Positions 25,824 to 50,431 of a stretch of 64,000 nucleotides of DNA are shown piece after piece. The notes under the pieces were generated by a model. The model was not told where the DNA came from and made no database searches. It saw nothing but the letters and a program-made list of their open reading frames with translations. The stretch spans positions 310,001 through 374,000 of the forward strand of contig NZ_VAJM01000002.1 of NCBI RefSeq assembly GCF_005771675.1, in the 5' to 3' direction. Each line of letters starts with the position of its first letter. The first letter of the stretch is position 1. The DNA comes from Hymenobacter jeollabukensis. Its GTDB lineage: Bacteria > Bacteroidota > Bacteroidia > Cytophagales > Hymenobacteraceae. Both the position numbers and the translations under genes were made by a program.

Positions 25824-25831
25824 TACCTTTG
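25824..25831 (+). promoter_or_regulatory. Candidate Bacteroidota -7 element (TACCTTTG)
   Basis: TACCTTTG matches the TAnnTTTG consensus and lies 39 bases before the ATG at 25871. I see no convincing TTTG -33 element at the usual spacing. Confidence 0.35.
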
Positions 25832-25870
25832 CGGCGGCGCGGCCATCAGCGGCGCCTGCTTATTCCGGGT

Positions 25871-27376: not shown

Positions 27377-27394
27377 CGGCGCTTAACTGCCCGC

Positions 27395-28837: not shown

Positions 28838-29222
28838 AAAGGGCTCAGGAGGTGGTCAGCAGGCAATGAGCTGCTGCCCGGGCGGGTGGGTGGTAGAATG
28901 TAAAGCTACTAGGCCGGGCGGCAGCCGTCCAACCCGGTACCAGAAATCCAACTTTCCGGGAACGTTGCCAGCCGCGTCAGGGTCTGACAAACAGCTGACT
29001 TTCGGCGGATAAGAGAGGAAAACCAACCATTCGGATAGTAGTTGCCACAATTAAGTTATATTAGTGGCGCTTCTGGAGCTGATGGACTAGCTTCCGGGAA
29101 AATCCACGAACGGGCGCCTGGCCCTTCCCTCCGGGCTTCAGCTTCCGCCGGATATTTTTCCTTGGTCCACCACCCCGAAACGCGCACACCTCTTGTTCCT
29201 CCGATCCGCTTCTCCGGCGCCT
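28838..29222. promoter_or_regulatory. Divergent 385-base intergenic region
   Basis: Lies between the divergent aldehyde dehydrogenase and deacetylase genes and should hold both promoters. On the minus strand TAGCTTTA (28901-28908) resembles the -7 element, with TTGG about 20 bases upstream. It contains no credible ORF or RNA gene. Confidence 0.35.
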
Positions 29223-30443: not shown

Positions 30444-30497
30444 GCCGGAGTGCTGCCCAGCGCCTATTTTTGGCGCTTCTTACCTGAGTTCGTTTGT

Positions 30498-32375: not shown

Positions 32376-32423
32376 GGGAGGAGCGCCCATTTTCGGCGGG
32401 CAACCAGGACCGAGCTGGGCTGC

Positions 32424-33140: not shown

Positions 33141-33395
33141 GGGCGGGCAGGAGGGGGCGTGCGGGGCAAAATCAGCCGGCAGGTGCTGCCCGCTAAGTAG
33201 TTGGTGCGAAAAATGGCTTGGTCTGATCCGGCCGTTTCAGGGGGAGCGGCCGGGACCAGCGCAGGCGCGGCAACGCCTACGGAACCTCAAAACTACGGAA
33301 TCGGCGCGGGCCGCTTCCGAGGCAGCCCGCATCCGGAAGTATCTTTAAGCCCCGGACTTGTCGGAATACCTCCGGCCGGGCCTGATACCGTACCT

Positions 33396-36805: not shown

Positions 36806-37753
36806 TTAACCGCGGCCGACGGGTGCCGGCTCGCTGATGTTGGTGTCCGAAATGATGTAGAGCGGGCGTTGGCGTACGTTGGCGCTCAGGCGGGCCAGGT
36901 ACTCGCCGATGATGCCCACGGCAATCAGCTGCACGCCCCCCAAAAACAGGATGCTTACCATCAGCGAAGCCCAGCCCGGCTGGTAGTTGCGGGTGACGAA
37001 CCGCTCGAACAAGGTATACAGCAGCACCAGGAAGGCAATGCCCGTAGCGCCAAAGCCCATGAGCGTGGCCGCCTTCAGCGGCACGTCGCTGAAGGCGGTG
37101 ATGCCGTCCAGCGCCAGCTTGATCATCTTGCGATAAGTGTAGCCGGTTTCGCCGCCGGCGCGCTGGGCGCGGTCGTACTCCACGTAGGTCTGCCGGTAGC
37201 CGATCCACGAAATCTGCCCGCGCAGAAACTTGTTCTGCTCCGGCATCTGCTTGAGCGCCTGCACCACCTTGCGCGAAATGATGCGAAAGTCGCCCGTGTC
37301 GACGGGGATGGAGACATTGGTGATTTTGGCCAGGATGCGGTAGAACATCTTGGCCGTGAACAGCTTCATGGCACTTTCGCCCTCGCGGCGGCGACGTTTG
37401 GCGTACACCACCTCGTAGCCCTCGCGCATCTTGCGGTAGAGCTCCGGAATCAGCTCCGGCGGGTCCTGCAGGTCGGCATCGATGATGGCCACGGCCTGGC
37501 CCTGCGAGAGGTCGAGGCCGGCCGTTACGGCAATCTGGTGGCCGAAGTTGCGGCTGAAGTTGATGTAGCGCACGTCCGGGTGCCGCGCGGCCAGGTCCAG
37601 AATCAGCGGCAGGGAGCTGTCGCGTGAGCCGTCGTTGATAAAAATGAACTCACACTGGATGCCCATGGGGTCGATGACCCCGCGCAGGCGCTGGTAGAGC
37701 GTCGAAATGTTGGCTTCCTCGTTGTAGATGGGAATGATGACGGAGAGGTCCAC
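36806..37753 (-). CDS. Family 2 glycosyltransferase, DPM/GtrB-like
   Basis: A 315-residue enzyme with an N-terminal GT-A domain (VIIPIYNEEANI; INDGSRDSS; metal site DADLQDPPE with Asp92 and Asp94; SRNFGHQIAVTAGLD) and two C-terminal membrane helices (about 228-250 and 262-285). This is the layout of GtrB/ArnC-type polyprenyl-phosphate sugar transferases. It would make undecaprenyl-phosphate-hexose on the cytoplasmic face for GT-C enzymes acting outside. The 12-base gap to the DUF2079 gene supports an operon. Confidence 0.92.
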   Translation of the reverse strand: MDLSVIIPIYNEEANISTLYQRLRGVIDPMGIQCEFIFINDGSRDSSLPLILDLAARHPDVRYINFSRNFGHQIAVTAGLDLSQGQAVAIIDADLQDPPELIPELYRKMREGYEVVYAKRRRREGESAMKLFTAKMFYRILAKITNVSIPVDTGDFRIISRKVVQALKQMPEQNKFLRGQISWIGYRQTYVEYDRAQRAGGETGYTYRKMIKLALDGITAFSDVPLKAATLMGFGATGIAFLVLLYTLFERFVTRNYQPGWASLMVSILFLGGVQLIAVGIIGEYLARLSANVRQRPLYIISDTNISEPAPVGRG

Positions 37754-37805: not shown

Positions 37806-40280
37806 TCAACGGGCGGAGTTCAGCGGGAAATTATTTTTCAACCAGACCGCCCCGTGATGATGAAAGACGTCGGTGCCGGCCGGGCGAATCAGCAGCTCGT
37901 CGGCGGCTAGGTCGGGGTTGTCGACAAGCAGTTGCAAGCGGCGCGTATCGGGCCGCACGTGCACGGGTACTGCCACCCGAACCCAGCCATGATAAATATC
38001 AGTGCTAAGCGCATTATTGACGTAGGTGTGTTCCTGTTGTTGGCCCTGGCCATCGAAGGTCTTGGCCTGGAAGTTTCCGAGGCCATGCGCCCGGGTAGCC
38101 TGGATCCAGATGGAAGCTTCGTACCGGCCGGTGTCGGCGGGTGCAGCTCCTTCGTAAACGGTCGTAAAGAAGCTGTCGTAGGGCCGGCCGGCGGCTACCA
38201 GCGCACCCCGACCAAAAAGCCCCGGGTTGGCTGGCAGGCTGTCGAACGATTGATATAGGGCGGTGCCGCTACCATTGAGCCACAACAGGCTATCGGCAGA
38301 ACGGCGCATGCTGCCTTTGGCAGCGGCTAGTTGGCGCAGGGCCCGGGCCGGTTCGCTGCTTACCAAGCTGTCGGCCGGCAATTCGTAGAGGTTGGCCACC
38401 CAGCCTTCCCCCAGCAGCTTGGCGCGCTGCAACAGGCTCTGTTCGTTGGGCGTCAGCCAGGCACCACGTAGCACCAACAACAGAAACGGCTTGCGCGAAG
38501 GTAGCTGAGCGGCTAGTGAGCGGGGCAACAGCGGATTGGCCAGGAGCTGAGCCAGGTTCAGCGTTTCCCCTACCGACGTACGCGTCATCATCACGGCCGC
38601 CTGGGGTAGGCCCGTATTCATCATGACCCGACTGCTTTGCCGCAGGACTTCGCCGTGCGCTTCGATAGCCAGTTTATCGGTGCCTACGCAGTACCAAGGC
38701 AGCGGCAGGACTGCCTGAAAATCAGTCGGCTGCCGGCCAAAGTAATTCAGCAGGCGCAGGTATTCATCGGCTGTATATTCCCGGGCAGTAGTTTGTTGGG
38801 CTAGGGTGTCGCGCACCGGGCGCACGTTTTCCCACGCCTCGGAGGTCCATATCAGCCCCGACAAAGCCAGCAAAGCGGCCCCGGCCCAGGTGTGGTGCCG
38901 CCAAGCCAGGCAGCGGTACAGCTGGTATAGGTAGTACACCGCGTAAACGGTGTACACGTAATAAAACAGCCATGCCATGCGGCCCAGGGCCCGGAATTGC
39001 TTGACCGGGCCGATAAGTAAGGCTTCGCCACCGGGTAGAATAAAGGGAAAAGACATAGCTAGCAGCAACGCCAAAACACCCGCTACCAACGCAGTGCGCA
39101 AGGGGCGGGGTAGCATGGGGCGCCGCAACTGTTGCCACTGGCCGCGCATCAGGCGCTGGCCAAAACGCCACATCGAGAACAGCAGCACCAGCACCCCGGG
39201 AATGCCTACGTAGGCAAAGCCTTCCCAGGGACCTAATTTCCAGTCGTGGATGGCGGCTATTTGGTTGTGCCAGAAGCCCTGGGAGGGCAGAAATATACTG
39301 CTCGGCCGGGAGGTATAAACAAACGTACCGTACGGATTCAGGGGGCGGTCCGCCACGTGGTCCGTAAGCGCCAGCCAAATGCGGAATGCTCCTAGTGGTA
39401 CTACGGCACCTATGAGCAGCGGTAGCAGCCGGGCGCGAACCGTGCGCAGCGGGTCCTGCAACAGCAGGGCCAGCGCGCTGCCACCGGCCAGTACACCGCT
39501 TATCAATAAAAAATAAGTGTGCATCAGGGCGGCCCCAACGGCCACCAGCACGTACGCCAGCGGCCAGCGCCACTGTCTCGGCTGTTCCAGCATGCGCATC
39601 AGCCCGTACCAGAGCGCCGGCACTACCAGCGGCGCAAACAGGCTCGGATGGGTAGTGAGGCGCCCTTGCTGGGGCGAAAGGTATACCAGCACCAAAGCCG
39701 CCGGAATGGCCACCCAGGCCGGCAGCCCCAAGCGGCGGAGCACCGCAAAAAGCACAAGCGGCGCCCCGATCAGCGTCAGCAGCAGGGCCAGGTTCATGCC
39801 CGCAATGATGGCGGCGGGGCTCATCGGCACAAGCAGATAAATGCCCCGCAGCAGCAAGGCCACCAGCGGAATCAGGTCGTAATAATTGATATGCTCCCCG
39901 TAGGGATAAAGCATGGCATTACTGTAGTTGCCCCCGCCGTGCTGCACGTAGTACACCAGGCTGTATACCGTCTTAATAGCGTCTCCATTGACATTGACCA
40001 CGCGGGTATTGATGGGCAGCAACGGCGTATAGCATAGGCACGCAACAAGCGCAGACAGCAGAAGGGTGATGCCGTGAGGCAACCAGCGCCGATAGGGGGA
40101 GGGAGTCGCTAGCAACAAAAGAAGACGGGCAAGTAGGTAAACGGATGTTGGACGCAGGCTCGAAACGTGCGAAGATAAGGACCAGTAGGGTACGTTCTTG
40201 CGGAGCGGATGCAGAACAGGTAGTCGGGGAACCAGTGTGCCGGCAGGTCCAGAAGTTGCTGGCGGGCTCCCGGCTGGCAA
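37806..40280 (-). CDS. GT-C-like membrane protein (YPxG family, member 3) with C-terminal jelly-roll-like domain
   Basis: Up to 824 residues. About eleven hydrophobic segments follow a first external loop with GDAIKTVYSLVYY and MLYPYGEHINYYD, the same YPxG motif as 30498 and 33396. The soluble part contains AVLPLPWYCVGTDKL, also shared. Unlike its paralogs it continues for about 150 residues (YQSFDSLPANPGLFG ... GRYEASIWIQATR ... LLVDNPDLAADELLI) with the strand pattern of the small lipoproteins at 40358-48823. The start is uncertain: the frame opens with TTG at 40280 and has no ATG before the first helix. GC content looks lower than its neighbours. Confidence 0.72.
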   Translation of the reverse strand: MPAGSPPATSGPAGTLVPRLPVLHPLRKNVPYWSLSSHVSSLRPTSVYLLARLLLLLATPSPYRRWLPHGITLLLSALVACLCYTPLLPINTRVVNVNGDAIKTVYSLVYYVQHGGGNYSNAMLYPYGEHINYYDLIPLVALLLRGIYLLVPMSPAAIIAGMNLALLLTLIGAPLVLFAVLRRLGLPAWVAIPAALVLVYLSPQQGRLTTHPSLFAPLVVPALWYGLMRMLEQPRQWRWPLAYVLVAVGAALMHTYFLLISGVLAGGSALALLLQDPLRTVRARLLPLLIGAVVPLGAFRIWLALTDHVADRPLNPYGTFVYTSRPSSIFLPSQGFWHNQIAAIHDWKLGPWEGFAYVGIPGVLVLLFSMWRFGQRLMRGQWQQLRRPMLPRPLRTALVAGVLALLLAMSFPFILPGGEALLIGPVKQFRALGRMAWLFYYVYTVYAVYYLYQLYRCLAWRHHTWAGAALLALSGLIWTSEAWENVRPVRDTLAQQTTAREYTADEYLRLLNYFGRQPTDFQAVLPLPWYCVGTDKLAIEAHGEVLRQSSRVMMNTGLPQAAVMMTRTSVGETLNLAQLLANPLLPRSLAAQLPSRKPFLLLVLRGAWLTPNEQSLLQRAKLLGEGWVANLYELPADSLVSSEPARALRQLAAAKGSMRRSADSLLWLNGSGTALYQSFDSLPANPGLFGRGALVAAGRPYDSFFTTVYEGAAPADTGRYEASIWIQATRAHGLGNFQAKTFDGQGQQQEHTYVNNALSTDIYHGWVRVAVPVHVRPDTRRLQLLVDNPDLAADELLIRPAGTDVFHHHGAVWLKNNFPLNSAR

Positions 40281-40315: not shown

Positions 40316-40323
40316 TATATTTG
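40316..40323 (+). promoter_or_regulatory. Candidate -7 element (TATATTTG) for the 40358 lipoprotein
   Basis: A perfect TAnnTTTG, 34 bases before the ATG. The same TATATTTGCTG string precedes the related lipoprotein gene at 48263. The TTTA at 40297 is a poorly spaced -33 candidate. Confidence 0.4.
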
Positions 40324-40357
40324 CTGGCTTCTAGAGCCCTTCGTTGTACTCCTGCCC

Positions 40358-40897
40358 ATGCGTTTTTCGATTCTTAGCGCTGGTCTGCTCTTGTTCTCGG
40401 CTGCCTGTTCTTCGGATGGGGCTACGGGTAAAGTTGGTGACCACAGCACGCTGATAAACACTGGTTTCGATGATATGGCTGGCTGGGTGCCAGCTACGCC
40501 TTCGCTGACCAAAGAACGGGCCCGGTCGGGCCTGTATTCCATCAAGACGGACAAGGACATCGAGTATAGCCTCACCTACCGGCAACTGCTCGCGGACGTG
40601 GTGTCGTCGAAGCCCCGCAAGCTTCGTCTGACGGGGTGGGTCAACACCTCCGGACCCGATGCCGACGCCATTTTGTCGTTGCAAATCCTGAGTTCCAAGG
40701 ACGGGTCTACGGTATTTAACGAAGGCGTGAACGTGAAAGAGCAGGTCAAAAAGCCCGGCAGCTGGCAACAAGTAAGCCACGAGTTCGTCCTGCCAGAAAA
40801 GGCAATATCGACCGACGAACTGCGGGTGTTCTTGTGGCGCGCCGGCAGCGGCGCGCCCGTCTACCTTGACGATGTCGAACTGCAGCTTGTCGAATAA
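40358..40897 (+). CDS. Small lipoprotein, jelly-roll-like family (member 1)
   Basis: A 179-residue protein. The signal MRFSILSAGLLLFSAAC places the lipidated Cys at 17. The mature domain, about 160 residues, has the family pattern: GFDDMAGWVPATPS, RARSGLYSIKTDKDIEYSL, RLTGWVNT, WQQVSHEFVLPEKAISTDEL, FLWRAGSGAPVYLDDVELQ. This is the strand order expected for a carbohydrate-binding-type beta-sandwich (inference). Three paralogs lie within 8 kb. It is divergent from the GT-C gene at 37806 and upstream of the GT-C gene at 41074. No catalytic residues are apparent. Confidence 0.8.
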   Translation: MRFSILSAGLLLFSAACSSDGATGKVGDHSTLINTGFDDMAGWVPATPSLTKERARSGLYSIKTDKDIEYSLTYRQLLADVVSSKPRKLRLTGWVNTSGPDADAILSLQILSSKDGSTVFNEGVNVKEQVKKPGSWQQVSHEFVLPEKAISTDELRVFLWRAGSGAPVYLDDVELQLVE

Positions 40898-41073
40898 TCC
40901 GGCTTGAGGCCGCGCACCGGATTTGCAGCACCACCAAGTGCTAAGGTCTGCAGGCCCTAACGCGGTACAATACGCCTTTACAGCCCGCGCTGACCAAATG
41001 CAGCTTAAGGGCCTGGATTTGCGGGCTAGATTACTGGGCTGGCGCCGGGATGAACTCTTAGAACATCACTTAC

Positions 41074-42621
41074 ATGTCTTTTTTCTCGTCGGCCAACCGT
41101 CAGCTAAAGACGCACCCTTACCACATCGGAGCAGCCGTATTTTTCGTGGCGTTGGGGGCTTTTTTCTACTGGCCCTTTATTACGGCTATGCCCTCCGGGA
41201 TGCATTCCTGGGCACAGGGCGACCGGTTGGCGCTGGCTATCAATTTCTACGACTACGGCTTCGACTTCTGGCATCCCCGCACTTCGTCGCTCGTTTCTAT
41301 TGGCGGCATTACCGGGGTAGAATTCCCAATCCAAGCTTATTTGGCGGCTCTGATAGGGGGCGTTTTTGGTCGGGATGCTATCAACCCCGCGTTTCGTTTG
41401 CTGGACATTGCCTGCGCGCTGGTCGGATTTTTCTATTTGTTTCGGCTGGTGTTCGAGCGCACCGGGCACTTTGTGGCCGCGTTGCTACCGGCATGTTTCC
41501 TGCTGGGCTCACCCGTCGTGGGCTTTTACTCCGGTAACTACCTGCCCGATCCGGCCAGTCTGGCGCTGAGCTTTGTCGGATACTACTACTGGCTGCGTTT
41601 TATAGAGCACCGCTTGTTCCGCGACATGCTAGTGGCCTTGGCAGTGCTGACGTTAGCGGCCCTCATCAAAACCACCACGGCCCTGTTTCTGGCGGCGGTG
41701 TTGGGCCTCACGTTGGTCTGGGGATTTTTCGAGCCGCCGCTGATGAACGGCCGGCAACGGCGGTGGTTCGTGGGCTTGGCGGCGGTAAGCGTCGGCCTGA
41801 TTGTGGGGTACTTCCTGCATAATCAGGCCCTGAATACCTACTACCAGTCGTGGCAATTCCTGGCCCAGCTCATGCCCATTAAAGACGACGATTCGCTGCA
41901 CACCGTTACTCGGGCCGTCCGAGGCTGGATGTGGCGGGAATACGGCACCGTGACGCAGTACCGGATGTTACTGGCCAGTGCCGCGCTGCTGTTCGTATTT
42001 GCGCGTACCAACCTGCGCCGGTTCTTACCGCTGGTGCTGCTGCTACTGCCCGCCCTGGCTATCGGCTACACCTTCTTTTGGATGATGGGGGAGCAGTTGC
42101 CCATACACGACTACTACGTTATTGCGTCGTTTGTGCCCGCCGCGCTGCTGCTGCTGCTGCTGGCCCTGCTGAACTTGGGCCGGTTTGGCGGATGGTTTCG
42201 CTGGGTGAGCAGCGTGGGATTGGCGGTGTTATGCTTTGTGCTGCTGCGCGACGGCTACAAGCACCTGCACCAGCGCATGGAAGACGACACCTACGCTTGG
42301 CTGCAAGAAGGCGGGGCGCGGCTGGATGAATCCGGGGTGCCGAAGAAGGCTATGGTGCTCATTCTGGGAACCGAGGTCATCAATACGCCCCTGGTGTACG
42401 CCGACCGGCGTGGGCGCACCCTCAGCGCCGTGCCCGCCGACGCAACCCCGCAGTACCTGACCGAGCTGATGGCGCGGGACAGCCTTGAATACGTGCTCAT
42501 GCCCCAGGATTTCTACACCGGTATGGTGCAGCACCACACCACCCTGCCAACGGCTTTTGCGCCGGTTATGCAGCAGCCGTTTGTCGTATTGCGTCGCCTT
42601 GATATGCGTCAGCCGTGGTAA
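41074..42621 (+). CDS. GT-C/ArnT-like polytopic glycosyltransferase
   Basis: A 515-residue membrane protein with about eleven hydrophobic segments. The first external loop has GMHSWAQGDRLALAINFYDYG and GITGVEFPIQAY, matching the HSW and G-x-FP motifs of the 25871 protein, so the two are paralogs. GNYLPDPASLAL is a second ArnT-like loop. The likely role is periplasmic sugar transfer from a polyprenyl carrier. Lipoprotein genes flank it on both sides (40358 upstream; 42654 downstream, whose frame can overlap the stop here), implying a functional unit. Confidence 0.8.
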   Translation: MSFFSSANRQLKTHPYHIGAAVFFVALGAFFYWPFITAMPSGMHSWAQGDRLALAINFYDYGFDFWHPRTSSLVSIGGITGVEFPIQAYLAALIGGVFGRDAINPAFRLLDIACALVGFFYLFRLVFERTGHFVAALLPACFLLGSPVVGFYSGNYLPDPASLALSFVGYYYWLRFIEHRLFRDMLVALAVLTLAALIKTTTALFLAAVLGLTLVWGFFEPPLMNGRQRRWFVGLAAVSVGLIVGYFLHNQALNTYYQSWQFLAQLMPIKDDDSLHTVTRAVRGWMWREYGTVTQYRMLLASAALLFVFARTNLRRFLPLVLLLLPALAIGYTFFWMMGEQLPIHDYYVIASFVPAALLLLLLALLNLGRFGGWFRWVSSVGLAVLCFVLLRDGYKHLHQRMEDDTYAWLQEGGARLDESGVPKKAMVLILGTEVINTPLVYADRRGRTLSAVPADATPQYLTELMARDSLEYVLMPQDFYTGMVQHHTTLPTAFAPVMQQPFVVLRRLDMRQPW

Positions 42622-42653
42622 AAGCGCTCATCATTCACAACAACTGGCGGACC

Positions 42654-43208
42654 ATGTCCCGGGGCTGTTTGTTTATTCTGCTGGGGTTAGGGCTAATGTC
42701 CGCTCTGCCGGGCTGTCGGCCGCGCGACGGGCGGGAGGATGTTCGGGAACGGTTGGTCATGCAATGCAATTTCGAGTCGATGACCAGCCTGCAGCCCGAT
42801 TCTCTGCTACCCACGCTTACCCAGCGCCGGGCCCATTCCGGGCGCTTCGCTATCCGCGTAGATTCTGCCCACGAGTATTCTATGAAATACAGCGTGCGGT
42901 TGGGGCAGGTTTTCCCTCTACGCGTGCGCAAGCTCCACATCAGTGCCTGGGCCTGGGTGCCGCGATTCGAAGACGACGCGGCACTGATAACGGCAGTATC
43001 GGCCCCAAACGAGCCCGACCGCACGGTTCTTTACCGCGCTTACCCGCTGGCCGATGCCGGTCCGTACGAAAAGTGGAAGCCTTTGGACTTCTACATCGAC
43101 ATGCCGTTTGAGGCGGGCTACAACAGCCAGTTGACCCTTTACATGTGGCGCAGGCAGGCCCAGCAGCCCGTGTATCTCGACGATTTGCGGATAACCGAAA
43201 TTCGGTGA
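42654..43208 (+). CDS. Small lipoprotein, jelly-roll-like family (member 2)
   Basis: A 184-residue protein from the ATG at 42654, which gives the signal MSRGCLFILLGLGLMSALPGC (Cys21). A GTG at 42615 in the same frame overlaps the upstream stop but adds a non-signal leader. Family motifs: CNFESMTSLQ, RRAHSGRFAIRVDSAHEYS, HISAWAWVP, LTLYMWRRQAQQPVYLDDLRIT. It follows the GT-C gene at 41074 with essentially no gap, so they are cotranscribed. Confidence 0.78.
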   Translation: MSRGCLFILLGLGLMSALPGCRPRDGREDVRERLVMQCNFESMTSLQPDSLLPTLTQRRAHSGRFAIRVDSAHEYSMKYSVRLGQVFPLRVRKLHISAWAWVPRFEDDAALITAVSAPNEPDRTVLYRAYPLADAGPYEKWKPLDFYIDMPFEAGYNSQLTLYMWRRQAQQPVYLDDLRITEIR

Positions 43209-43309
43209 TGGGTTGCGCTTTGGCTGGCGGTAATTTCAAGTGAAGCCTGTTGACCAGAATTCACGGCAAATCGTGCTGCGAAAGACAACGCCTTAATACT
43301 TTTTTTACC

Positions 43310-43317
43310 TAGTTTTG
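43310..43317 (+). promoter_or_regulatory. Candidate -7 element (TAGTTTTG) for the 43348 lipoprotein
   Basis: Matches TAnnTTTG and lies 30 bases before the ATG, in an AT-rich stretch with a T run. The -33 element is not clear. Confidence 0.35.
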
Positions 43318-43347
43318 GGCTTTCAAAAGCTTCTGTTTCGCTGATTT

Positions 43348-43884
43348 ATGAAAAAAGTGCTTTACGCACTCACCGCTCTGTGCATGGTATCCTGCGGTGA
43401 TAAGACGGGTACCGAATCGCCCAACCGGCTGGCCGGAAACGATTTTGAAGCTATGGAAGGCTGGGTCAACGACCCCAGCGTTCTGGCTTCGTTAACTACG
43501 GCCAAAGCGCATTCCGGCCGTTATGCAGTGAAAGTAGACCCAAGCGTGGAGTACAGCACCGGCTACAACAACCTGCTCGGCAAACTCAGCCCCACCAAGC
43601 TTACCGCGTTTAAAGTCCGTGCGTGGGTGTTCTTGGCAAAGGCCAATACTCCGGTGAAAATGGTAATTGGTATTGCTAATCCCACCACCAACAAGCAGCT
43701 GTTGTGGGAAGGCGTTGACCTAGGCCCTGCCGCCAAAGCTGCTAACAAGTGGGTGGAAATTGAGAAAACCATCACCCTGCCGGCAGAGGCGACTTCCACT
43801 GACCGCTTAAGCATCTATATGTGGCGCACCCCCGCGGCGGAAACCGCTTACATCGACGACATGGTTATCGAAAAAGCGGAGTAA
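43348..43884 (+). CDS. Small lipoprotein, jelly-roll-like family (member 3)
   Basis: A 178-residue protein with the signal MKKVLYALTALCMVSC (Cys16). Family motifs are complete: NDFEAMEGWVNDPS, KAHSGRYAVKVDPSVEYSTGY, FKVRAWVFLA, KWVEIEKTITLPAEATSTD, LSIYMWRTPAAETAYIDDMVI. It is the closest match to a family consensus among the four. It has its own promoter-like element and a very strong terminator (43907-43959), so it may be expressed independently of 41074-43208. Confidence 0.8.
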   Translation: MKKVLYALTALCMVSCGDKTGTESPNRLAGNDFEAMEGWVNDPSVLASLTTAKAHSGRYAVKVDPSVEYSTGYNNLLGKLSPTKLTAFKVRAWVFLAKANTPVKMVIGIANPTTNKQLLWEGVDLGPAAKAANKWVEIEKTITLPAEATSTDRLSIYMWRTPAAETAYIDDMVIEKAE

Positions 43885-43906
43885 GTCTGATTTCATGGCA
43901 ACGCAT

Positions 43907-43959
43907 CTAAGCAGCCGCCGCTTGGTCCCGGGTTTTCGGGCCAAGCGGCGGCTGCTTAG
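43907..43959 (+). terminator. Long hairpin terminator
   Basis: CTAAGCAGCCGCCGCTTGG (43907-43925) pairs with CCAAGCGGCGGCTGCTTAG (43941-43959); the inner CCC/GGG also pair after one bulged base. Confidence 0.75.
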
Positions 43960-44116
43960 TTGATTGGCCAGCCAGAACGGTGCCGACAACACCGACTCGG
44001 GTGCTTTACTGCCGGTAAGGCTACCGGACGGAAACCCTTAGCGGTGCTGGATAAGCTGAGGAAACGAAACGACAACCGGTCGACTGAGGCCGAGGCCGTG
44101 CTGGCCGCGGCTTAAC

Positions 44117-44908
44117 CTACAGGCTGCTGGTGCGCCCGCCGTCCACCGGCACGTTGATGCCGTTGATGTAGCTGGCTAGCGGCGAAGCCAGAAACGCAAT
44201 GGCCGCCGCCACTTCTTCGGCTTCCCCGAAGCGCCCGGCCGGAATCAGCCGCTGCATCTGGGCCTCCAGCTCTTGCACGGGTGTGCCGGTGCTGGCCGAA
44301 CGCGCCGCCAGCAGGCTGTGGTGGCGCTGGGTGAGCGTGGCCCCGGGCAGCACGTTATTGACGGTAATGCCCGAGGGACCCAGCTCGTTAGCCAGGGTTT
44401 TGGCCCAGCTGGCCACCGCCCCGCGCGTGGTGTTCGACACCCCGAGGTTGGGCAGCGGCTGCTTCACCGAGGTGCTGATGACGTTGATGATGCGCCCGTA
44501 GCCGGCGGCTTTCATGCCTGGCACCAGGGCCTGGGCCAGCAGGTGGTTGCAGACGACGTGTTGCTCAAACGCCGCCCGCAGGTCGTCGACGGAGGCGGCC
44601 AGCAGCGGGCCGCCCGCCGGGCCGCCGGTGTTGTTGACCAGAATGTGGGTGGCCGGGTTCTTGGCTACGTATTCGGCCAGGCGCTCGGCCAGCTCGGCGG
44701 GGCGGCTGAAGTCGGCCACCAGGTAGTCGTGCTGCTGGCCGTGCTCGGCGGGCAGGGCGGCGGCTACTTCGCGCAGGGCGTCTTCGTTGCGGGCAATGAG
44801 GGTGACGTGGGCGCCGCGGGCGGCCAGCGCCTCGGCGGCGGCCCGCCCGATGCCCTGGGTGCTGCCGCACACCACGGCGCGGCGGTCGGTGAGTTGGTCG
44901 GTAAGCAT
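44117..44908 (-). CDS. SDR-family oxidoreductase with atypical active site
   Basis: A 263-residue short-chain dehydrogenase fold. NAD(P) motif GSTQGIG at residues 15-21, NNTGG at 92-96, and the catalytic-region Ser145 (NVISTS). Where YxxxK is expected (about 158-162) the sequence reads SNTTR, so the classical Tyr and Lys are absent. The ATG at 44908 gives the family N-terminus; the open frame beyond it is the intergenic repeat region. It is divergent from the 3-hydroxyanthranilate dioxygenase gene. A role in the kynurenine route is possible by context but no step requires it. Confidence 0.85.
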   Translation of the reverse strand: MLTDQLTDRRAVVCGSTQGIGRAAAEALAARGAHVTLIARNEDALREVAAALPAEHGQQHDYLVADFSRPAELAERLAEYVAKNPATHILVNNTGGPAGGPLLAASVDDLRAAFEQHVVCNHLLAQALVPGMKAAGYGRIINVISTSVKQPLPNLGVSNTTRGAVASWAKTLANELGPSGITVNNVLPGATLTQRHHSLLAARSASTGTPVQELEAQMQRLIPAGRFGEAEEVAAAIAFLASPLASYINGINVPVDGGRTSSL

Positions 44909-44924
44909 GGCCGCAAGGTAGCTA

Positions 44925-45112
44925 GGTGACAGGTAACACGTGACACGTGACAGGTAACGGGGAAGCCGCGCAGAAGCGGCTGAACTTCGGCCCGGGTACT
45001 GAAAATCCGGTGGTTCCGGTGGCAGTTTATAACTTGTCCCCGGGCACGCGTTACGTGTCACCCCAAACCCATCCACCCACCACGTGCCGCTCGGCACGTG
45101 TTACCCGTCACC
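44925..45112. repeat. Inverted and direct repeats between divergent genes
   Basis: GTGACAGGTAAC occurs directly at 44926-44937 and 44947-44958. GGTGACAGGTAACACGTG (44925-44942) is the reverse complement of 45095-45112 with one mismatch, and CGCGTTACGTGTCACCCC (45047-45064) is a further copy. CACGTGCC/GGCACGTG (45081-45100) forms a hairpin just before the dioxygenase start. The whole interval between the SDR and dioxygenase genes is built from these words. It could be an operator region or a degenerate repeat. Confidence 0.65.
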
Positions 45113-45117
45113 CCAAT

Positions 45118-45645
45118 ATGCCCGTCACGCGCCCCTTCAACTTCCAGCAGTGGATTGACGAACACCGCCACTTGCTCAAGCCGCCCGTCGGCAACCAACA
45201 GGTGTTCAAAGGCAACGACGACTTCATCGTGATGGTGGTGGGCGGCCCCAACGCCCGCAAGGATTACCACGTCGACGACAGCGAGGAGTTTTTCTTCCAG
45301 CTGGAAGGCGACATGACGCTGAAAATCATCGAGGACGGCAAGCCGGTGGATTTGCCCATCCGGGCCGGCGAGATATTTCTGCTGCCCGCGGGCGTGCCCC
45401 ACTCCCCGCAGCGCCCGGCCGGCACCGTGGGCCTGGTGGTGGAGCGCTACCGCAAGCCCGGCGAGCTGGACGGCTTTCAGTGGTACTGCGAAAACTGCGG
45501 CACCAAGCTATACGAGGAGTTTACGGAAGTCACCGACATCGTGAAGCAGCTGCCCGTCATCATGGGCAACTTCTGGCAGAGCGAGGAGCGCCGCACCTGC
45601 AAGAACTGCGGCACCGTGATGCAGCCGCCCGCCCCGGTGCAGTAA
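45118..45645 (+). CDS. nbaC: 3-Hydroxyanthranilate 3,4-dioxygenase
   Basis: A 175-residue cupin enzyme that opens 3-hydroxyanthranilate to 2-amino-3-carboxymuconate semialdehyde. Iron ligands His51, Glu57 and His95 (DYHVDDSEEF and GVPHSPQRP) and the substrate Arg47 and Arg99 all fit the bacterial enzyme. A C-terminal rubredoxin-like metal site is complete (Cys124, Cys127, Cys161, Cys164; YCENC and CKNC). I chose the ATG at 45118 because the family N-terminus starts there. Its product is used by the ACMSD encoded 1.4 kb downstream; a GT-C-like gene lies between them. Confidence 0.96.
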   Translation: MPVTRPFNFQQWIDEHRHLLKPPVGNQQVFKGNDDFIVMVVGGPNARKDYHVDDSEEFFFQLEGDMTLKIIEDGKPVDLPIRAGEIFLLPAGVPHSPQRPAGTVGLVVERYRKPGELDGFQWYCENCGTKLYEEFTEVTDIVKQLPVIMGNFWQSEERRTCKNCGTVMQPPAPVQ

Positions 45646-45670
45646 GCCCCAGACCCGGATTTTCGCCGCC

Positions 45671-45712
45671 AGCCGGTCGGCGCGCATGGCCCATGCGCGC
45701 CGACCGGCTTTC
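45671..45712 (+). terminator. 19-bp hairpin terminator with T run
   Basis: AGCCGGTCGGCGCGCATGG (45671-45689) is the reverse complement of 45691-45709, with a single-base centre, followed by TT and further T residues. It follows the dioxygenase gene. Confidence 0.78.
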
Positions 45713-45748
45713 TTTGTGTCTTGAATCCTGCTAAGTGGCCTGCTGTTA

Positions 45749-47035
45749 ATGAAATCTAACGTCGTATTCTGGCTGGCGGCGGCGCTGCTGACCCTGGCCA
45801 TGTTTCAGGACAAGCGCTGGAAGGCCATGGAAGTCCTCGACTCCGACCCCGGCGGCTATTACGTGTACCTGCCCTCGGCCTTCATCTACGGCGACCTGGG
45901 CCGGCCCGACTCGCTCGGCGCCCTGCGCCATATCTACCGCCCTGCGGAGGAGCCGGCCGAAATCGGGCTCAAGCCCCTGCCCGGCAAGCGGTTCATGAGC
46001 AAATACACCCTCGGCAAGGCCCTGGCCGACCTGCCTTGGTTTCTCGGCGCCCATGCCTGGGCCGGCGCCAGCGACAAATACGCCGCCGACGGCTTCAGCC
46101 GGCCCTACCAGCAGATCATCATGATTGCGGGCCTGTTCCACGGCATTCTGGGCCTCTGGATTCTGCGCAAGCTGCTGCGCCGCTACTACGACGACGGCAC
46201 CACGGCCTGGGCGCTGGCGGGCATCGGCCTCGGTACCAACCTGTTCTGCTACGCCAGCTACGACGCCAACATGGCCCACGCCGTGCTCTTCCTCTGGCAG
46301 GCGGCGCTGCTCTACTGCTCGGCCCGCTGGTACGAAACCGGCCGCCCGGGCTTTGCCGCCGGCATCGGCCTGTTTCTGGGCCTGGCCATTCTCACCCGCC
46401 CTTCGGAGGCTATGTACGGGCTGGTGCCGCTCACCTGGGGCCTCACCCTGGCCGCGCCGGCCCTGCGGCAGCGGGCCCAGTGGTGGTGGGAGCGGCGCGG
46501 GCAGCTGCTGCTGGCGGCCGTGCTGCTGCTGGCGGTGGTCAGCCTGCAGGCGCTGTTCTGGCACGCCGTCAGCGGGCACTGGATTGTGTATTCCTACACC
46601 GGCGAGAAGTTCGATTTCCTGCACCCGCACCTCGTCGAGGGCCTGATCAGCTTCCGCAAGGGCTGGTGGCTGTATACCCCTATGGCCCTGCTCAGCCTGG
46701 GTGGCCTGTGGTGGCTGCGCCGCGACGTGCCCGCCGCCTGGCTGATGGTGCTGCTGATGGTGCCGGTGGCCATCTACGTGACCTTCAGCTGGCGCACCTG
46801 GTCCTACGGCGGCAGCTTCAGCTGCCGGCCGCTGGTGAGCCTCTACCCGGTGCTGGCCCTGCCGCTAGCCAGCCTGCTGGCCCACGCCCGCTGGCGCTGG
46901 GCCCTGCGCACCGTGGTGGTGGCCTTTATCGTGCTGAACCTCTGGCAGAGCTGGCAGTACGCCGGCGGAGTGCTGCACTGGGACGACACCACGGCCGACA
47001 TGTATTTTCGTAACTTTTTCCGCCGCAAGCTCTAA
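45749..47035 (+). CDS. GT-C-like polytopic membrane protein
   Basis: A 428-residue membrane protein with about nine hydrophobic segments. The first external loop contains an acidic start ([24 protein letters not shown]) and [19 protein letters not shown], typical of Bacteroidota GT-C-like proteins of unknown specificity. [15 protein letters not shown] and [13 protein letters not shown] are further conserved-looking loops. It lies between the two kynurenine-pathway genes at 45118 and 47085 although it has no evident metabolic link to them, after a strong terminator. The next gene starts about 50 bases later. Confidence 0.75.
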
Positions 47036-47084
47036 GCCGCGGCGGCTCTTCCTTTTCCCTCCACCGGCCGCCACCCACGGCCCG

Positions 47085-48137
47085 TTGCCACCCACCCCCG
47101 TCTTGCTGACCGTCGACATTCACACCCACATCCTGCCCAAACAGTGGCCCGACCTGCGCGAGCGGTACGGCTACGGCGGCTTTATCCGGCTGGAGCACCA
47201 CAAGCCCTGCTGCGCCCGCATGATGCAGGACGACAAGTTCTTCCGCGAAATCCAGGACAACTGCTGGGACCCCGCCGTGCGCCTGCGCGAGTGCGGGCAC
47301 TTCGGCGTCGACGTGCAGGTGCTGAGCACGGTGCCCGTCATGTTCAGCTACTGGGCCAAGCCCCACGACGCGCTGGACCTGAGCATGCTGCTCAACGACC
47401 ACATTGCCGGCGTGGTGGCCGACTACCCCGACCGCTTTGCCGGCCTGGGCACCATTCCGCTGCAAGCCCCCGACCTGGCCGTGAAGGAGCTGGAGCGCTG
47501 CGTGAAGGAATTGGGCCTGATCGGGGTGCAGATTGGCTCCCACGTCAACGACTGGAACCTCGACGCCCAGGAGCTGTTCGAGGTGTTTCAGGCCGCCGAG
47601 GAGCTGGGCGCGGCCGTGTTCGTGCATCCCTGGGACATGATGGCCCAGCAGAAAATGCCCAAGTACTGGCTGCCCTGGCTGGTGGGTATGCCCGCCGAAA
47701 GCACCCTGGCCCTCTGCTCGCTCATCTTCGGCGGGGTGCTGGAGCGCCTGCCCCGGCTACGCGTGGCCGTGGCCCACGGCGGCGGAACCTTCGCCAGCAC
47801 CATCGGCCGCATCGAGCACGGCTTCCAGGTGCGCCCCGACCTCTGCGCCATCGACAACCCGGTGAACCCGCGCGAGTACCTGGGCAAGTTCTGGGTCGAC
47901 TCGCTGGTGCACGACCCGCTGATGCTCGACTACCTAGTGAAAACCCTCGGCGCCGACAAAATCACGCTCGGCACCGACTACCCCTTCCCGCTCGGCGAGC
48001 TGGAGCCCGGGCAGCTCATCCGCAGCATGCCTTACCCCGACGACGTGAAGGCGCGCATGCTGGGGCAGAACGCGCTGGACTGGATGGGGGTACGAGTGGA
48101 GCAGTTCCGGCGCGCCGGCTCGGCGTACCGAGCGTAG
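47085..48137 (+). CDS. 2-Amino-3-carboxymuconate-6-semialdehyde decarboxylase (ACMSD)
   Basis: A metal-dependent amidohydrolase-fold decarboxylase that turns ACMS into 2-aminomuconate semialdehyde, diverting it from quinolinate. About 350 residues. Zinc ligands: DIHTH (His13, His15), His181 (VFVHPWD), His231 (VAHGGG) and Asp298 ([10 protein letters not shown]), all as in characterised ACMSDs. There is no ATG near the N-terminus. The start is TTG at 47085 or TTG at 47103, and the latter fits the family length slightly better. It acts directly after the dioxygenase at 45118. Confidence 0.93.
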
Positions 48138-48194
48138 GCGCCAACGGGGCTTGGTCGGCTTGCCCGGCTTCCGCCATCCTACAAGCAACTGAAG

Positions 48195-48202
48195 TATATT
48201 TG
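48195..48202 (+). promoter_or_regulatory. Candidate -7 element (TATATTTG) for the 48263 operon
   Basis: A perfect TAnnTTTG within TATATTTGCTG, the same string as upstream of the 40358 lipoprotein, in an AT-rich gap after ACMSD. A -33 element is not clear. Confidence 0.4.
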
Positions 48203-48262
48203 CTGTATGGCCCCTGTTGAGCAGGACTGCTATACACCCGCACACACAGATTTTTTAATTAC

Positions 48263-48823
48263 TTGCCTGTGGCTCATCTTTTCTCGTGTAGGGCGCTCAT
48301 ACGTAGGTTGTTCGTGCAGCTGGGTATGGCGGCGCTAATAATTTCCGGACTGAGCCATTGCCAACCAGCCGCTCAGGAACCCGTGTTGAGCACCAGCTTT
48401 GAGGATCTAGATGGCTGGGTTCCGGCCCCGCCCTCGTGGCTGAGTGATGAAAAAGCGCATTCTGGGCGTTACAGCTGCCGGATGACTGGGGGCGATGAGT
48501 ACACCATGCAATTTAATCGCTCTTGGAAGGATTTGGGCAGCCCCCGCAAACTGCGCCTGAATGCCTGGGCCCTGCTGCCACACGGCCGGCTGAAGCTCAA
48601 TTTGGTGGTGAGTGTGAGCCGCAATGATTCTACATTATACTGGAATAGTATCTCGCTACCGGGCGTCATCAAACATTATAATCAGTGGGTGCCAGTGCAC
48701 AAGCTGCTGGTCTTGCCGGCTGGTCTGGTGCCCACCGATAAAGTGACTATGTATCTATGGAAGAGTGGCGGCATGGTCGACGCTATTTACCTGGATGATC
48801 TGCGCTTGGATAAATTGTCTTAG
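48263..48823 (+). CDS. Small lipoprotein, jelly-roll-like family (member 4)
   Basis: A 186-residue protein from a TTG start (a GTG at 48269 is the alternative; no ATG fits). The signal ends in GLSHC (Cys33), with a long basic leader. Family motifs: TSFEDLDGWVPAPPS, KAHSGRYSCRMTGGDEYTM, LRLNAWALLP, WVPVHKLLVLPAGLVPTDK, MYLWKSGG and IYLDDLRLD. The GT-C gene follows 4 bases after the stop, so the two are certainly cotranscribed and probably translationally coupled. Confidence 0.77.
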   Translation: MPVAHLFSCRALIRRLFVQLGMAALIISGLSHCQPAAQEPVLSTSFEDLDGWVPAPPSWLSDEKAHSGRYSCRMTGGDEYTMQFNRSWKDLGSPRKLRLNAWALLPHGRLKLNLVVSVSRNDSTLYWNSISLPGVIKHYNQWVPVHKLLVLPAGLVPTDKVTMYLWKSGGMVDAIYLDDLRLDKLS

Positions 48824-48827
48824 GATC

Positions 48828-50189
48828 ATGGCTCTTACCTCCGTTTCTTCCTCCGGCCCCGTTCCGGAGTACCCGCTTGGCATTGGTTCGCCGATGCCGG
48901 TGCAGCGCGAGCCGCTGCGCTGGACTGATTATGCTCTGACGATTCTGCTGCACGCCGGACTGTTGACGGCGCTCTACTCTGCTTGCTACTGCTTCGGCCT
49001 GCTCGACTATTTGCCGGAACAGGCGCGGCTGCTTAATTGGGACGGAAATAATTTCTATTCCATAGCCGTCAACGATTACCCAACGGACTCGAAGCTGGGT
49101 ACCAACGCCTTTTTTCCATTGTTTCCCTATTGGTGGCGCCTCACCGGACTCGATGCCGTTGGCATCAGCATTCTAAATGCCATTTGGGCGTGGGTGGGCG
49201 CTGGCGTCTTGGCGCTTACGTTTGGCCTGACGCGGCGGCAACTGCTGTTACTGCTGGCCTTGCCTTCCCTGCTGTTTACCATGGTGCCATACGGCGAGGG
49301 CTTATTCTTCTTTTTCGGGGCGCTGCTGCTGCGCGGCTTGCATCGGCAGCAGGTAGCGCTTGTCCTGCTCGGGCTAGCTGGCTGCTGCCTGGCCCGTTCG
49401 GCCGGCACGACTTTTTTGCCCGCTTACTTGTTTGCCGAACTGCTCACGTGGGACCGGCGCAAGAGCTTCGGGCGGCAACTCGGGGAACTACTGGCTGGTA
49501 TTTTGGCCGTGGTGGCGGCCGTGGTGCTCGTAATGTGGTTGCAGTACCGTCGGCACGGGGATGCGCTTGCGTTTTACAATGTACACTCGTTGTGGGGCCA
49601 CAAATTCCACCTGCCCGAGACCCTGCTAAACGATTCCGCCGGCATCAACGTCTTGTGGCTTGATCTGGCGGCGCTGGTCGTGGTAGTGGTGGCATTGGTA
49701 GCCTGCCTGGCTTTGGGCGTGCGTTGGCTGCTGGGGCTGGGCAAGGCGCACACGGATGCGCCAAGGCTTTCCAAGGCAGTGTTATTTTCGCTTGGCTACG
49801 CCGTGGGAGCCGGATACTTTATCGTATTCTACCAAAACCCTGATATCGTGGGCCTGAGCAGGTATATTTTTGCCAGCCCATTTTTTTTCGTGATACTGGC
49901 CTGGGCCTGGCAGTACCAGCAAACGCAGCCGCGCCTTTGGTTAGGGGTGCTGACGGCTTGTGTGCTGGTGGCTACCTTGGTCGGGTGGCCTTGGTACTTC
50001 GATAACTTTATGCCTCTGGAGGCTACTTGGTATTTCGTGCTCTTCACGTTGTACTGTCTTGCCTTCCTCTTCATCGGTAAGGCAGATTTTCGGTGGTACC
50101 GGGAGCTGTCGGTTGGCTTATACGGTATCAACCTGCTGGCCCTGGTGTATATGCTCAACCTGTTTTTGGAGGGTGTCTGGATTAATTAA
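48828..50189 (+). CDS. PIG-V-like (GT76-type) mannosyltransferase-like membrane protein
   Basis: A 453-residue protein with about ten hydrophobic segments. WDGNNFYSIAVNDYP in the first external loop, NAFFPLFPYWWRL, and FTMVPYGEGLFFFFGALL match the PIG-V/GT76 pattern of lipid-linked-mannose-dependent transferases. The ATG at 48828 lies 4 bases after the lipoprotein stop. The gene looks less GC-rich than the flanking kynurenine genes. The acceptor is unknown; the coupled lipoprotein is the obvious candidate partner. Confidence 0.82.
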   Translation: MALTSVSSSGPVPEYPLGIGSPMPVQREPLRWTDYALTILLHAGLLTALYSACYCFGLLDYLPEQARLLNWDGNNFYSIAVNDYPTDSKLGTNAFFPLFPYWWRLTGLDAVGISILNAIWAWVGAGVLALTFGLTRRQLLLLLALPSLLFTMVPYGEGLFFFFGALLLRGLHRQQVALVLLGLAGCCLARSAGTTFLPAYLFAELLTWDRRKSFGRQLGELLAGILAVVAAVVLVMWLQYRRHGDALAFYNVHSLWGHKFHLPETLLNDSAGINVLWLDLAALVVVVVALVACLALGVRWLLGLGKAHTDAPRLSKAVLFSLGYAVGAGYFIVFYQNPDIVGLSRYIFASPFFFVILAWAWQYQQTQPRLWLGVLTACVLVATLVGWPWYFDNFMPLEATWYFVLFTLYCLAFLFIGKADFRWYRELSVGLYGINLLALVYMLNLFLEGVWIN

Positions 50190-50431
50190 GCCCCAGATAG
50201 AGGAGGTGAATAGGTAGAGAATTGCCTGCCTTTTGGGTGCTAAAAGGATAAGGAGCCCCGGCTTATGCGTCGCGACCCGGAATCAGAACGGCGCACCTGC
50301 TTCAATCGGCGCTGGCGTGCGGCGGACTGAGCCAGCAGCATCCGTAGCGCGACGTGTCGCTGCCCGAGCACAAATCCGGGCAACGGGACTGAAACTGGGC
50401 ACCGCAACCGATTGCCCTTTATCTTCGCTCG

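What the first reader, a model, noticed from the sequence alone, without database searches (positions are those of the whole stretch)
40358..48823. Four paralogous small lipoproteins embedded among GT-C membrane enzymes
Genes at 40358, 42654, 43348 and 48263 encode lipoproteins of about 180 residues with one shared pattern: (F)(D/E)-x-M/L-x-GWV, AHSGRY or SGLY, EYS/EYT, a central aWv strand, W...LP, Y/FlW, and a terminal VYLDDL-type strand. They look like single beta-sandwich (jelly-roll) domains. Two sit directly against GT-C genes (4-base gap before 48828; no gap after 41074), and two carry the same TATATTTGCTG promoter-like string. The pairing suggests lipoprotein cofactors, acceptors or glycan-binding partners of the transferases. 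I know of no described system like this.
Basis: partly seen in the sequence, partly recalled or inferred. Interest (0 to 1): 0.75.

Follow-up and report, generated by a model that had tools for sequence, protein, structure and literature searches.

The report
Glycan-binding lipoproteins paired with sugar transferases
A family of small membrane-anchored proteins that look like sugar-binding modules sits next to, comes and goes with, and is sometimes fused to membrane sugar-transferring enzymes in Hymenobacter and its relatives, which suggests that they are detachable parts of those enzymes.

Summary
Four lipoproteins (40358, 42654, 43348, 48263) form one family (27-32% identity to the first, 17 invariant columns), and the 6.18 Mb genome has no fifth strong copy. 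The fold is a CBM22/CBM4_9-like beta-sandwich (PF02018 in 30 of 36 members; PDB profile hit 4XUP E 1.5e-13; model pLDDT 87.5). The pairing is real: 58 of 68 family genes adjoin a multi-TM protein, against 23 of 258 genes in control stretches. In 13 of 41 loci a transferase carries the same domain fused; the model of one resembles Emb, ArnT, PglB and AftA, and CBM22 for the tail. Within the genus, lipoprotein-transferase cassettes are whole or missing at two sites. A GtrB-like donor synthase homologue lies in 37 of 41 loci. Best reading: detached carbohydrate-binding subunits that hold acceptor glycan for periplasmic GT-C enzymes. Sugar binding and contact are inferred, and most neighbours lack a Pfam GT-C match. 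Precedents: EmbC, GT136 (fused modules), LpqZ-AftA, FecB-AftB (lipoprotein partners). New variant of a known kind.

The parts
40358..40897 (+). lipoprotein A, CBM22/CBM4_9-like domain (179 aa)
   Evidence: (PF02018 22.7 bits, below the cut-off)
41074..42621 (+). GT-C enzyme, PMT_2 family; in L049, L058 and L059 its relatives are directly followed by relatives of lipoprotein B
   Evidence: (PF13231 2.3e-10)
42654..43208 (+). lipoprotein B, partner gene downstream of 41074 (ATG 42654; alternative GTG 42615); no Pfam match of its own
43348..43884 (+). lipoprotein C, the clearest CBM match
   Evidence: (PF02018 31.5 bits, above the cut-off)
45749..47035 (+). GT-C enzyme (428 aa) of the family whose relatives carry the lipoprotein domain fused at the C-terminus; this copy lacks the domain and is not directly beside a lipoprotein gene
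   Evidence: (PMT_2 28 bits)
48263..48823 (+). lipoprotein D, paired with 48828
48828..50189 (+). multi-TM enzyme, GT-C-like (assignment by size, membrane spans and position only), 4 bases after lipoprotein D
   Evidence: no Pfam GT-C or PDB sequence match
37806..40280 (-). multi-TM GT-C-like enzyme (824 aa) with a C-terminal extension, divergent from lipoprotein A
   Evidence: no Pfam or PDB sequence match; homology of the tail to the lipoprotein family not shown
36806..37753 (-). GtrB-type polyprenyl-phosphate sugar synthase (likely donor supply)
   Evidence: PF00535; solved glycosyltransferase sll0501, E 6.1e-99; the name GtrB for it is recalled; homologue in 37 of 41 loci, 0 of 20 controls
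40316..40326 (+). TATATTTGCTG, promoter-like -7 element upstream of lipoprotein A
43310..43317 (+). TAGTTTTG, promoter-like -7 element upstream of lipoprotein C
48195..48205 (+). TATATTTGCTG, promoter-like -7 element upstream of lipoprotein D

Best explanation
The lipoproteins are detached carbohydrate-binding subunits of periplasmic GT-C glycosyltransferases. GtrB (36806) charges a polyprenyl phosphate with a sugar, the donor is flipped, and a GT-C enzyme (such as 41074 or 48828) moves the sugar onto a glycan in the periplasm. A lipid-anchored CBM22-like beta-sandwich next to the enzyme holds that acceptor glycan, doing what the fused C-terminal domain does in members of the 45749 family. Transferase plus lipoprotein cassettes are gained and lost as units at a conserved chromosomal site, so the glycan made there probably differs between strains. 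Shown: homology, predicted fold, lipobox, neighbourhood, fusion, joint presence and absence at two sites, a GtrB-type synthase nearby. Inferred: sugar binding, physical contact, acceptor role, inner-membrane location, strain-specific glycan.
For: Fold. Neighbourhood against control stretches; 67 of 69 family genes within 3 kb of a recurrent multi-TM family (no control for this count). Fusions in 13 of 41 loci, scores, model of one with GT-C and CBM22 matches. The 45749 enzyme family exists with and without the domain; in L044, L045, L082, L083 and L084 the unfused form lies within 350 bases downstream of a lipoprotein gene on the same strand. Lipoprotein clades follow the neighbouring enzyme family: 16 changes against 30.1 in shuffles, 0 of 200 as low. 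In the genus, between GtrB and SDR, lipoproteins and enzymes of clusters 0, 3, 5, 7 or 12 are both present in 5 genomes and both absent in 3; the lipoprotein D/48828-like pair is present in 2 and absent in 4 at the ACMSD-KYNU junction.
Against: No ligand, binding or contact test was possible. 14 of 70 adjacent multi-TM proteins have the Pfam match PMT_2 and no other Pfam family was listed; only one enzyme family was modelled, with query TM-scores of 0.33-0.42 to GT-C structures. Two family genes, in L079 and L086, have no such enzyme nearby. Enzymes of the same clusters occur without lipoprotein: G124 keeps a cluster-0 enzyme beside HAAO, and G003 and G004, which lack the lipoprotein, have a cluster-4 and a cluster-3 enzyme near the island. 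The window's 45749 and its counterparts in G001, G002 and G006 stand between HAAO and ACMSD with no lipoprotein beside them. 38 of 121 lipoprotein-bearing genomes lack the 45749 family at the cut-off used. The CBM22 ligand-site aromatic could not be traced with certainty. W157 and the A-H-S-G stretch of the lipoproteins are not kept in the fused domains. In GT136 the fused CBM bound the glycan but was not needed for activity. Shared inheritance of neighbouring genes would also cluster the labels on the tree.
Confidence: 0.5

Rival explanations
1. The lipoproteins are glycan-binding proteins of the outer membrane or cell surface that anchor or display the finished polysaccharide; they share the locus with the enzymes because they act on the same glycan, not because they touch them.
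For: CBM fold and lipidation Cys; many Bacteroidota lipoproteins reach the surface (recalled); enzyme variants tend to bring their own lipoprotein, as expected if the glycan sets the specificity.
Against: Fusion of the domain to GT-C enzymes would put it at the inner membrane, on the periplasmic side (inferred). Acidic residues just after the Cys (mean 1.75 in +2..+11) hardly exceed those of 12 other lipoproteins (1.58), so there is no clear surface-export signal.
Confidence: 0.22
2. The domain is a structural or assembly partner of the GT-C enzyme that no longer binds sugar, as the substrate-binding-protein-like LpqZ and FecB serve AftA and AftB.
For: Published precedent; W157 and the A-H-S-G stretch are conserved only in the detached form, as expected of a docking face; the CBM22 ligand-site aromatic could not be traced with certainty.
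Against: The family's best structural relatives include several carbohydrate-binding modules, and aromatic residues are kept at positions 66 and 70, close to the CBM22 signature aromatic, in 72 of 73 lipoproteins each.
Confidence: 0.16
3. The lipoproteins are the glycosylated acceptors of the neighbouring transferases.
For: Pairing of lipoprotein clades with distinct enzyme families.
Against: The Bacteroidota O-glycosylation motif is rarer than in shuffled sequences (24 against 39.2 in 69 proteins; present in 20 of 69). A domain of the same family is fused to the enzyme itself, and the fold is that of a binder. A site for an unknown linkage was not excluded.
Confidence: 0.07
4. The linkage is only shared residence in a variable genomic island without any working relation.
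For: The island is rich in multi-TM genes (140 of 670 against 14 of 312), and other non-membrane genes in it often adjoin one too (138 of 383). Some of the enzymes live without the lipoprotein.
Against: Lipoprotein genes adjoin one far more often than those genes (58 of 68; Fisher p 2e-14, not corrected for relatedness). Fusions occur, and a two-gene pair is whole or missing.
Confidence: 0.05

Closest known systems
EmbA/EmbB/EmbC and AftD arabinosyltransferases of mycobacteria
   Same: GT-C enzymes with a carbohydrate-binding module that binds the acceptor glycan (EmbC: abstract read; AftD: as cited in the GT136 paper); EmbA and EmbC are the top Foldseek hits of the fused protein
   Different: There the module is part of the enzyme; here most copies are separate lipoproteins. 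Sequence profiles of four of the enzyme families found no PDB chain, Emb included.
LpqZ-AftA and FecB-AftB of mycobacteria
   Same: A lipoprotein is a partner of a GT-C arabinosyltransferase (abstract and section 7 read)
   Different: LpqZ and FecB are substrate-binding-protein-like, not CBM-like. Here the pairing is seen as gene neighbourhood and fusion; there it was found by co-immunoprecipitation.
GT136 three-component system of Citrobacter youngae
   Same: Polyprenyl-phosphate sugar synthase plus a GT-C enzyme with a C-terminal CBM that binds the O antigen (abstract and section 10 read)
   Different: CBM fused, pentofuranose donor and a MATE flippase. Here the synthase is GtrB-like, the CBM-like part is mostly detached, and no flippase was sought.
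CBM22 xylan-binding modules (Xyn10C of Paenibacillus barcinonensis, Xyn10B of Clostridium thermocellum)
   Same: Sequence profile (4XUP, E 1.5e-13) and predicted fold
   Different: Not attached to a hydrolase; query TM-scores of only 0.43-0.51 and 14-18% identity to the CBM22 hits, so a distant relative; ligand unknown.

Membership tests
Pfam CBM_4_9 / CBM22-type modules | Profile match above the curated cut-off | tested here: inconclusive
   Window copies: 1 of 4 above the 25.9-bit cut-off, 2 below it, 1 with no match; 30 of 36 family members at E 0.01 or better
Pfam CBM_4_9 / CBM22-type modules | Jelly-roll beta-sandwich fold | tested here: met
   One member modelled (43348), pLDDT 87.5; the top 50 Foldseek hits include CBM22, CBM16, CBM4 and CBM61, beside other beta-sandwich domains
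Pfam CBM_4_9 / CBM22-type modules | Aromatic residue of the CBM22 ligand site (recalled) | tested here: inconclusive
   The CBM22 aromatic aligns with family position 67 (mostly Ser) in one module and with 70 (Y or F in 72 of 73) in the other; position 66 is Y or F in 72 of 73. The fused domains are aromatic at 66 in 15 of 16 and at 70 in 5 of 16
Pfam CBM_4_9 / CBM22-type modules | Binds carbohydrate | not testable with these tools
   No binding data
GT-C glycosyltransferases (neighbouring enzymes) | GT-C transmembrane fold | tested here: met
   For the 45749 family only: fused homologue model pLDDT 89.2, top hits Emb, OST, ALG12, ArnT, PglB and AftA. PMT_2 in 14 of 70 neighbours. 37806, 48828 and several other families not confirmed
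GT-C glycosyltransferases (neighbouring enzymes) | Catalytic acidic residue in the first periplasmic loop (recalled) | tested here: inconclusive
   Asp in D-x-x-G-Y-Y invariant in the 30 aligned members of the 45749 family and in the 28 of A10; its place relative to the active site was not examined
Lipoproteins | Lipobox with Cys | tested here: met
   Cys in the aligned position in 73 of 73; a stricter pattern found 69 of 73
LpqZ/FecB-like GT-C partner lipoproteins | Physical complex with the GT-C enzyme | not testable with these tools
   Only single chains could be modelled; the fusions are indirect evidence
LpqZ/FecB-like GT-C partner lipoproteins | Substrate-binding-protein fold | tested here: not met
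   Jelly-roll fold instead, so it works like them at most and is not a member

The most novel reading that the evidence does not exclude
A modular class of GT-C holoenzymes in Hymenobacteraceae: each periplasmic transferase brings its own detachable, lipid-anchored carbohydrate-binding subunit that sets which glycan it modifies, and such two-gene cassettes are exchanged at one conserved site so that related species decorate their surface glycans differently. The fused forms are the same holoenzyme in one chain.
Probability: 0.37. Interest if true: 0.75.

Novelty: new variant of a known kind. Interest (0 to 1): 0.6.

Why it matters
If right, it would give GT-C enzymes outside the mycobacteria a lipoprotein subunit, with natural fusions that point to the partners. 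How a GT-C enzyme chooses its acceptor glycan could then be tested by deleting or exchanging a 180-residue protein. It would also mark a variable glycan locus in most Hymenobacter genomes (the lipoprotein is found in 114 of 120).

Tried and rejected
Rejected: a shared special promoter (the string contains an ordinary Bacteroidota -7 element). Rejected as unproven: that the C-terminal tail of 37806 is the same domain (profile comparison E 0.048, probability 1.1%). The 45749-type paralogues outside the island in L114 and L115 do not match the family either. No support: the O-glycosylation acceptor idea. PDB sequence profiles of four neighbouring enzyme families found nothing, so fold comparison was used for one of them. 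On checking, I withdrew my first reading that position 66 is the CBM22 ligand-site aromatic: the printed alignments put that residue at 67 or 70.

Limits of the counts: my gene picker is crude (ORFs ranked by codon-position GC, membrane spans by hydropathy). It missed family members in at least L051, L085 and L089, and those genes are not in the 68 (both neighbours inside the stretch), 69 (whole set of the 41 loci) or 73 (69 plus the four of the window). The 41 test loci were chosen because they hold a family match: 21 named ones, and 20 stretches that I picked from the listings. Related genomes (for example L054 and L064, or L044 and L045) count apart, so the Fisher values overstate independence. 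Two weak named hits, L065 and L066, were not analysed. Control stretches are 20 arbitrary 20-kb pieces of 20 genomes. Ligand-site residues of CBM22 could not be read up (paper not held; passages of another CBM22 paper, PMC8280721, did not give them), and model coordinates were not among the files.
Full report
What is there. The window lies at 310001-374000 of contig C12 of a 6.18 Mb genome of the family that also holds Hymenobacter. Contig G067:C11 of the searches has the same length, 464386 bases, as the Hymenobacter norwichensis contig of L044, so group g4 is taken to be Hymenobacter; the window's own group, g1, has eight genomes here and is unnamed. The four lipoproteins are homologous: 27, 28 and 32% identical to the first, 17 invariant columns. 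The genome has no fifth strong copy.

What the fold is. Pfam CBM_4_9 matches 30 of 36 family members at E 0.01 or better. Of the four window copies it matches one above the curated cut-off, two below it, and one not at all. A profile of 36 members finds the CBM22 tandem of Paenibacillus Xyn10C (4XUP) at E 1.5e-13. The model of the 43348 protein has mean pLDDT 87.5. Its best Foldseek matches are CBM22 modules; CBM16, CBM61 and CBM4 are in the top 50, and so are other beta-sandwich domains such as those of clostridial binary toxins. Query TM-scores are about 0.4-0.5. This is a distant, CBM22-like jelly roll. The recalled ligand-site aromatic of CBM22 cannot be placed with certainty: in one module it aligns with family position 67 (mostly Ser), in the other with 70. 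Positions 66 and 70 are each Y or F in 72 of 73 lipoproteins; the fused domains keep an aromatic at 66 in 15 of 16 and at 70 in 5 of 16.

Distribution. At E 1e-5, 121 of 204 genomes of the family have the lipoprotein: 6 of 8 in the window's genus, 114 of 120 in Hymenobacter, and one weak match in a third genus. In a draw of 390 genomes of the order, 49 match at E 1e-8, of which 3 lie outside the family. Of these three, one lies beside a multi-TM enzyme (L080), one has none nearby (L079), and in the 12 kb fetched of the third only fused forms were called (L081). Within the order the family is thus nearly restricted to one lineage; other orders were not searched except by the named-genome scan, which gave two weak hits in Bacteroidota MAGs.

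Neighbourhood. In 41 loci (21 named Hymenobacter or Hymenobacteraceae loci, 20 unnamed), 58 of 68 lipoprotein genes have a multi-TM protein (at least 6 spans, 350-950 residues) as immediate neighbour. Among other non-membrane genes of the same loci it is 138 of 383, and in 20 control stretches 23 of 258 (Fisher p 1e-34 against controls, 2e-14 against in-locus genes, not corrected for relatedness). On the same strand within 300 bases: 39 of 68, against 62 of 383 and 15 of 258. 67 of 69 lie within 3 kb of a member of the recurrent multi-TM clusters; the exceptions are in L079 and L086. The 70 adjacent enzymes fall into 12 single-linkage clusters, and 1 of 14 control multi-TM proteins falls into any of these. 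Pfam PMT_2 matches 14 of the 70, and no other Pfam family was listed at E 0.001, so for many of these families the GT-C label rests on size, membrane spans and position.

Fusion. In 13 of 41 loci a multi-TM protein of about 620-710 residues carries the same domain at its C-terminus. In the first eight, from 7 of the 21 named loci, the domain scores are 1.6e-7 to 9.4e-14 in that small search. They belong to the family of window gene 45749, which is 428 residues long and lacks the domain; the two fused proteins of L081 form a cluster of their own. Fused and unfused forms can stand side by side (L076, L088), and in L044, L045, L082, L083 and L084 the unfused form lies downstream of a lipoprotein gene on the same strand. 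The model of one fused protein (617 residues, pLDDT 89.2, pTM 0.87) has EmbA, EmbC, oligosaccharyltransferase, EmbB, ALG12, ArnT, PglB and AftA among its best matches (query TM-scores 0.33-0.42), and CBM22 modules over about 160 columns, the length of its tail. The nine strands of the tail repeat the order of the nine strands of the lipoprotein model.

Dedicated pairs. 46 of 73 lipoproteins have a same-strand enzyme of a known cluster within 400 bases. On the lipoprotein tree the family of that enzyme changes 16 times, against 30.1 in shuffles (0 of 200 as low). Lipoprotein B groups (support 94) with L049, L058 and L059 copies that directly follow relatives of 41074. Lipoprotein D lies in a group of five (support 96) of which the three labelled ones, L078, L049 and itself, directly precede relatives of 48828. 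Shared inheritance of neighbouring genes contributes to this.

Present or absent together. In the window's genus a backbone of GtrB, SDR, HAAO-like, ACMSD-like and kynureninase-like genes is shared (names recalled; one or the other falls outside the fetched stretch or was not called in some loci). Between GtrB and SDR, five genomes (G000, G001, G002, G005, G006) have lipoproteins together with enzymes of clusters 0, 3, 5, 7 or 12. Three (G003, G004, G007) have neither, only a 37806-type enzyme. At the ACMSD-KYNU junction, G000 and G007 have the lipoprotein plus 48828-like pair, and G002, G003, G004 and G006 have nothing; in G001 and G005 the junction was not resolved. 37806-type enzymes remain in genomes without lipoproteins (G003, G004, G034), so that family does not need them. 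Of the six Hymenobacter genomes without the lipoprotein, the HAAO flank of G065, G066 and G095 holds only 33201- and DUF2079-type enzymes, which are never directly beside a lipoprotein gene; in G105 neither flank was found. Against the rule, G124 keeps a cluster-0 enzyme beside HAAO, and G003 and G004 a cluster-4 and a cluster-3 enzyme near the island, all without a lipoprotein. The window's 45749 and its counterparts in G001, G002 and G006 also stand between HAAO and ACMSD with no lipoprotein beside them. Across the family, 83 of 86 genomes with the 45749 enzyme family also have the lipoprotein (missing in G016, G017, G124), but 38 lipoprotein genomes lack that enzyme family, and genus membership confounds this count. 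Lipoprotein genes, 41074 and 48765 have lower third-position GC (0.63-0.76) than SDR, HAAO, ACMSD, KYNU and GtrB (0.83-0.93), whereas 45749 (0.91) does not. This would fit acquisition of the cassettes from elsewhere.

Donor supply. 36806 matches the solved Synechocystis glycosyltransferase sll0501 (GtrB, recalled name) at E 6.1e-99. A homologue lies in 37 of 41 loci and in 0 of 20 controls (some hits may be more distant GT2 paralogues).

How it most likely works. GtrB loads a sugar onto polyprenyl phosphate; GT-C enzymes use it in the periplasm; the lipoprotein holds the acceptor glycan at the enzyme. The fused form, and the published EmbC and GT136 modules, make this the most economical reading. 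The published lipoprotein partners LpqZ and FecB show that a separate lipoprotein can serve a GT-C enzyme. GT136 also warns that such a module may bind without being needed for activity. A detail for testing: W157 (73 of 73) and A, H and G of the A-H-S-G stretch (73, 71 and 73 of 73) are kept in the detached form but not in the fused one, whereas W133 and D168 are invariant in both (73 of 73 and 16 of 16 each). This would fit docking residues needed only when the module is separate.

Literature. Five searches of the held open-access library listed no paper describing CBM-like lipoproteins beside GT-C genes in Hymenobacter or other Bacteroidota; I saw 15 of 125, 11 of 11, 12 of 25, 4 of 4 and 5 of 5 rows, as listings. 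From the Bacteroidota O-glycosylation review (PMC12871550) I saw passages only; they describe the motif, and the exact form used was recalled.

Noticed in passing
44117-51730 (and 56424-57821): The cassettes are interleaved with kynurenine-pathway-like genes (HAAO, ACMSD-like amidohydrolase, kynureninase, KMO-like; names recalled from sequence, not from a family search). Homologues lie in 29, 22 and 15 of 41 related loci for HAAO, ACMSD and KYNU.
   Followed up: partly
25829-35141: Further multi-TM GT-C-like genes (25829 with a weak PMT match, 30450, 33201) and a second GT2-like gene (32424, name recalled) flank the island; relatives of 33201 occur in 23 of 41 loci, and none of its cluster is directly beside a lipoprotein gene.
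   Followed up: partly
37809-38318 (-): The C-terminal tail of the 824-residue enzyme has W and D-D-L-L landmarks in its alignment that recall the lipoproteins, but homology could not be shown.
   Followed up: partly
L119 9721-10467, L120 9771-10550, L078 5585-6364: In the three genomes of the genus without a cassette between the 37806-type gene and SDR, a ~250-residue gene with weak similarity to GtrB lies there; a similar gene stands beside the cassette in L076.
   Followed up: no
L081: Outside the family, genome G353 has two fused multi-TM proteins in tandem and no separate lipoprotein called in the 12 kb fetched.
   Followed up: no
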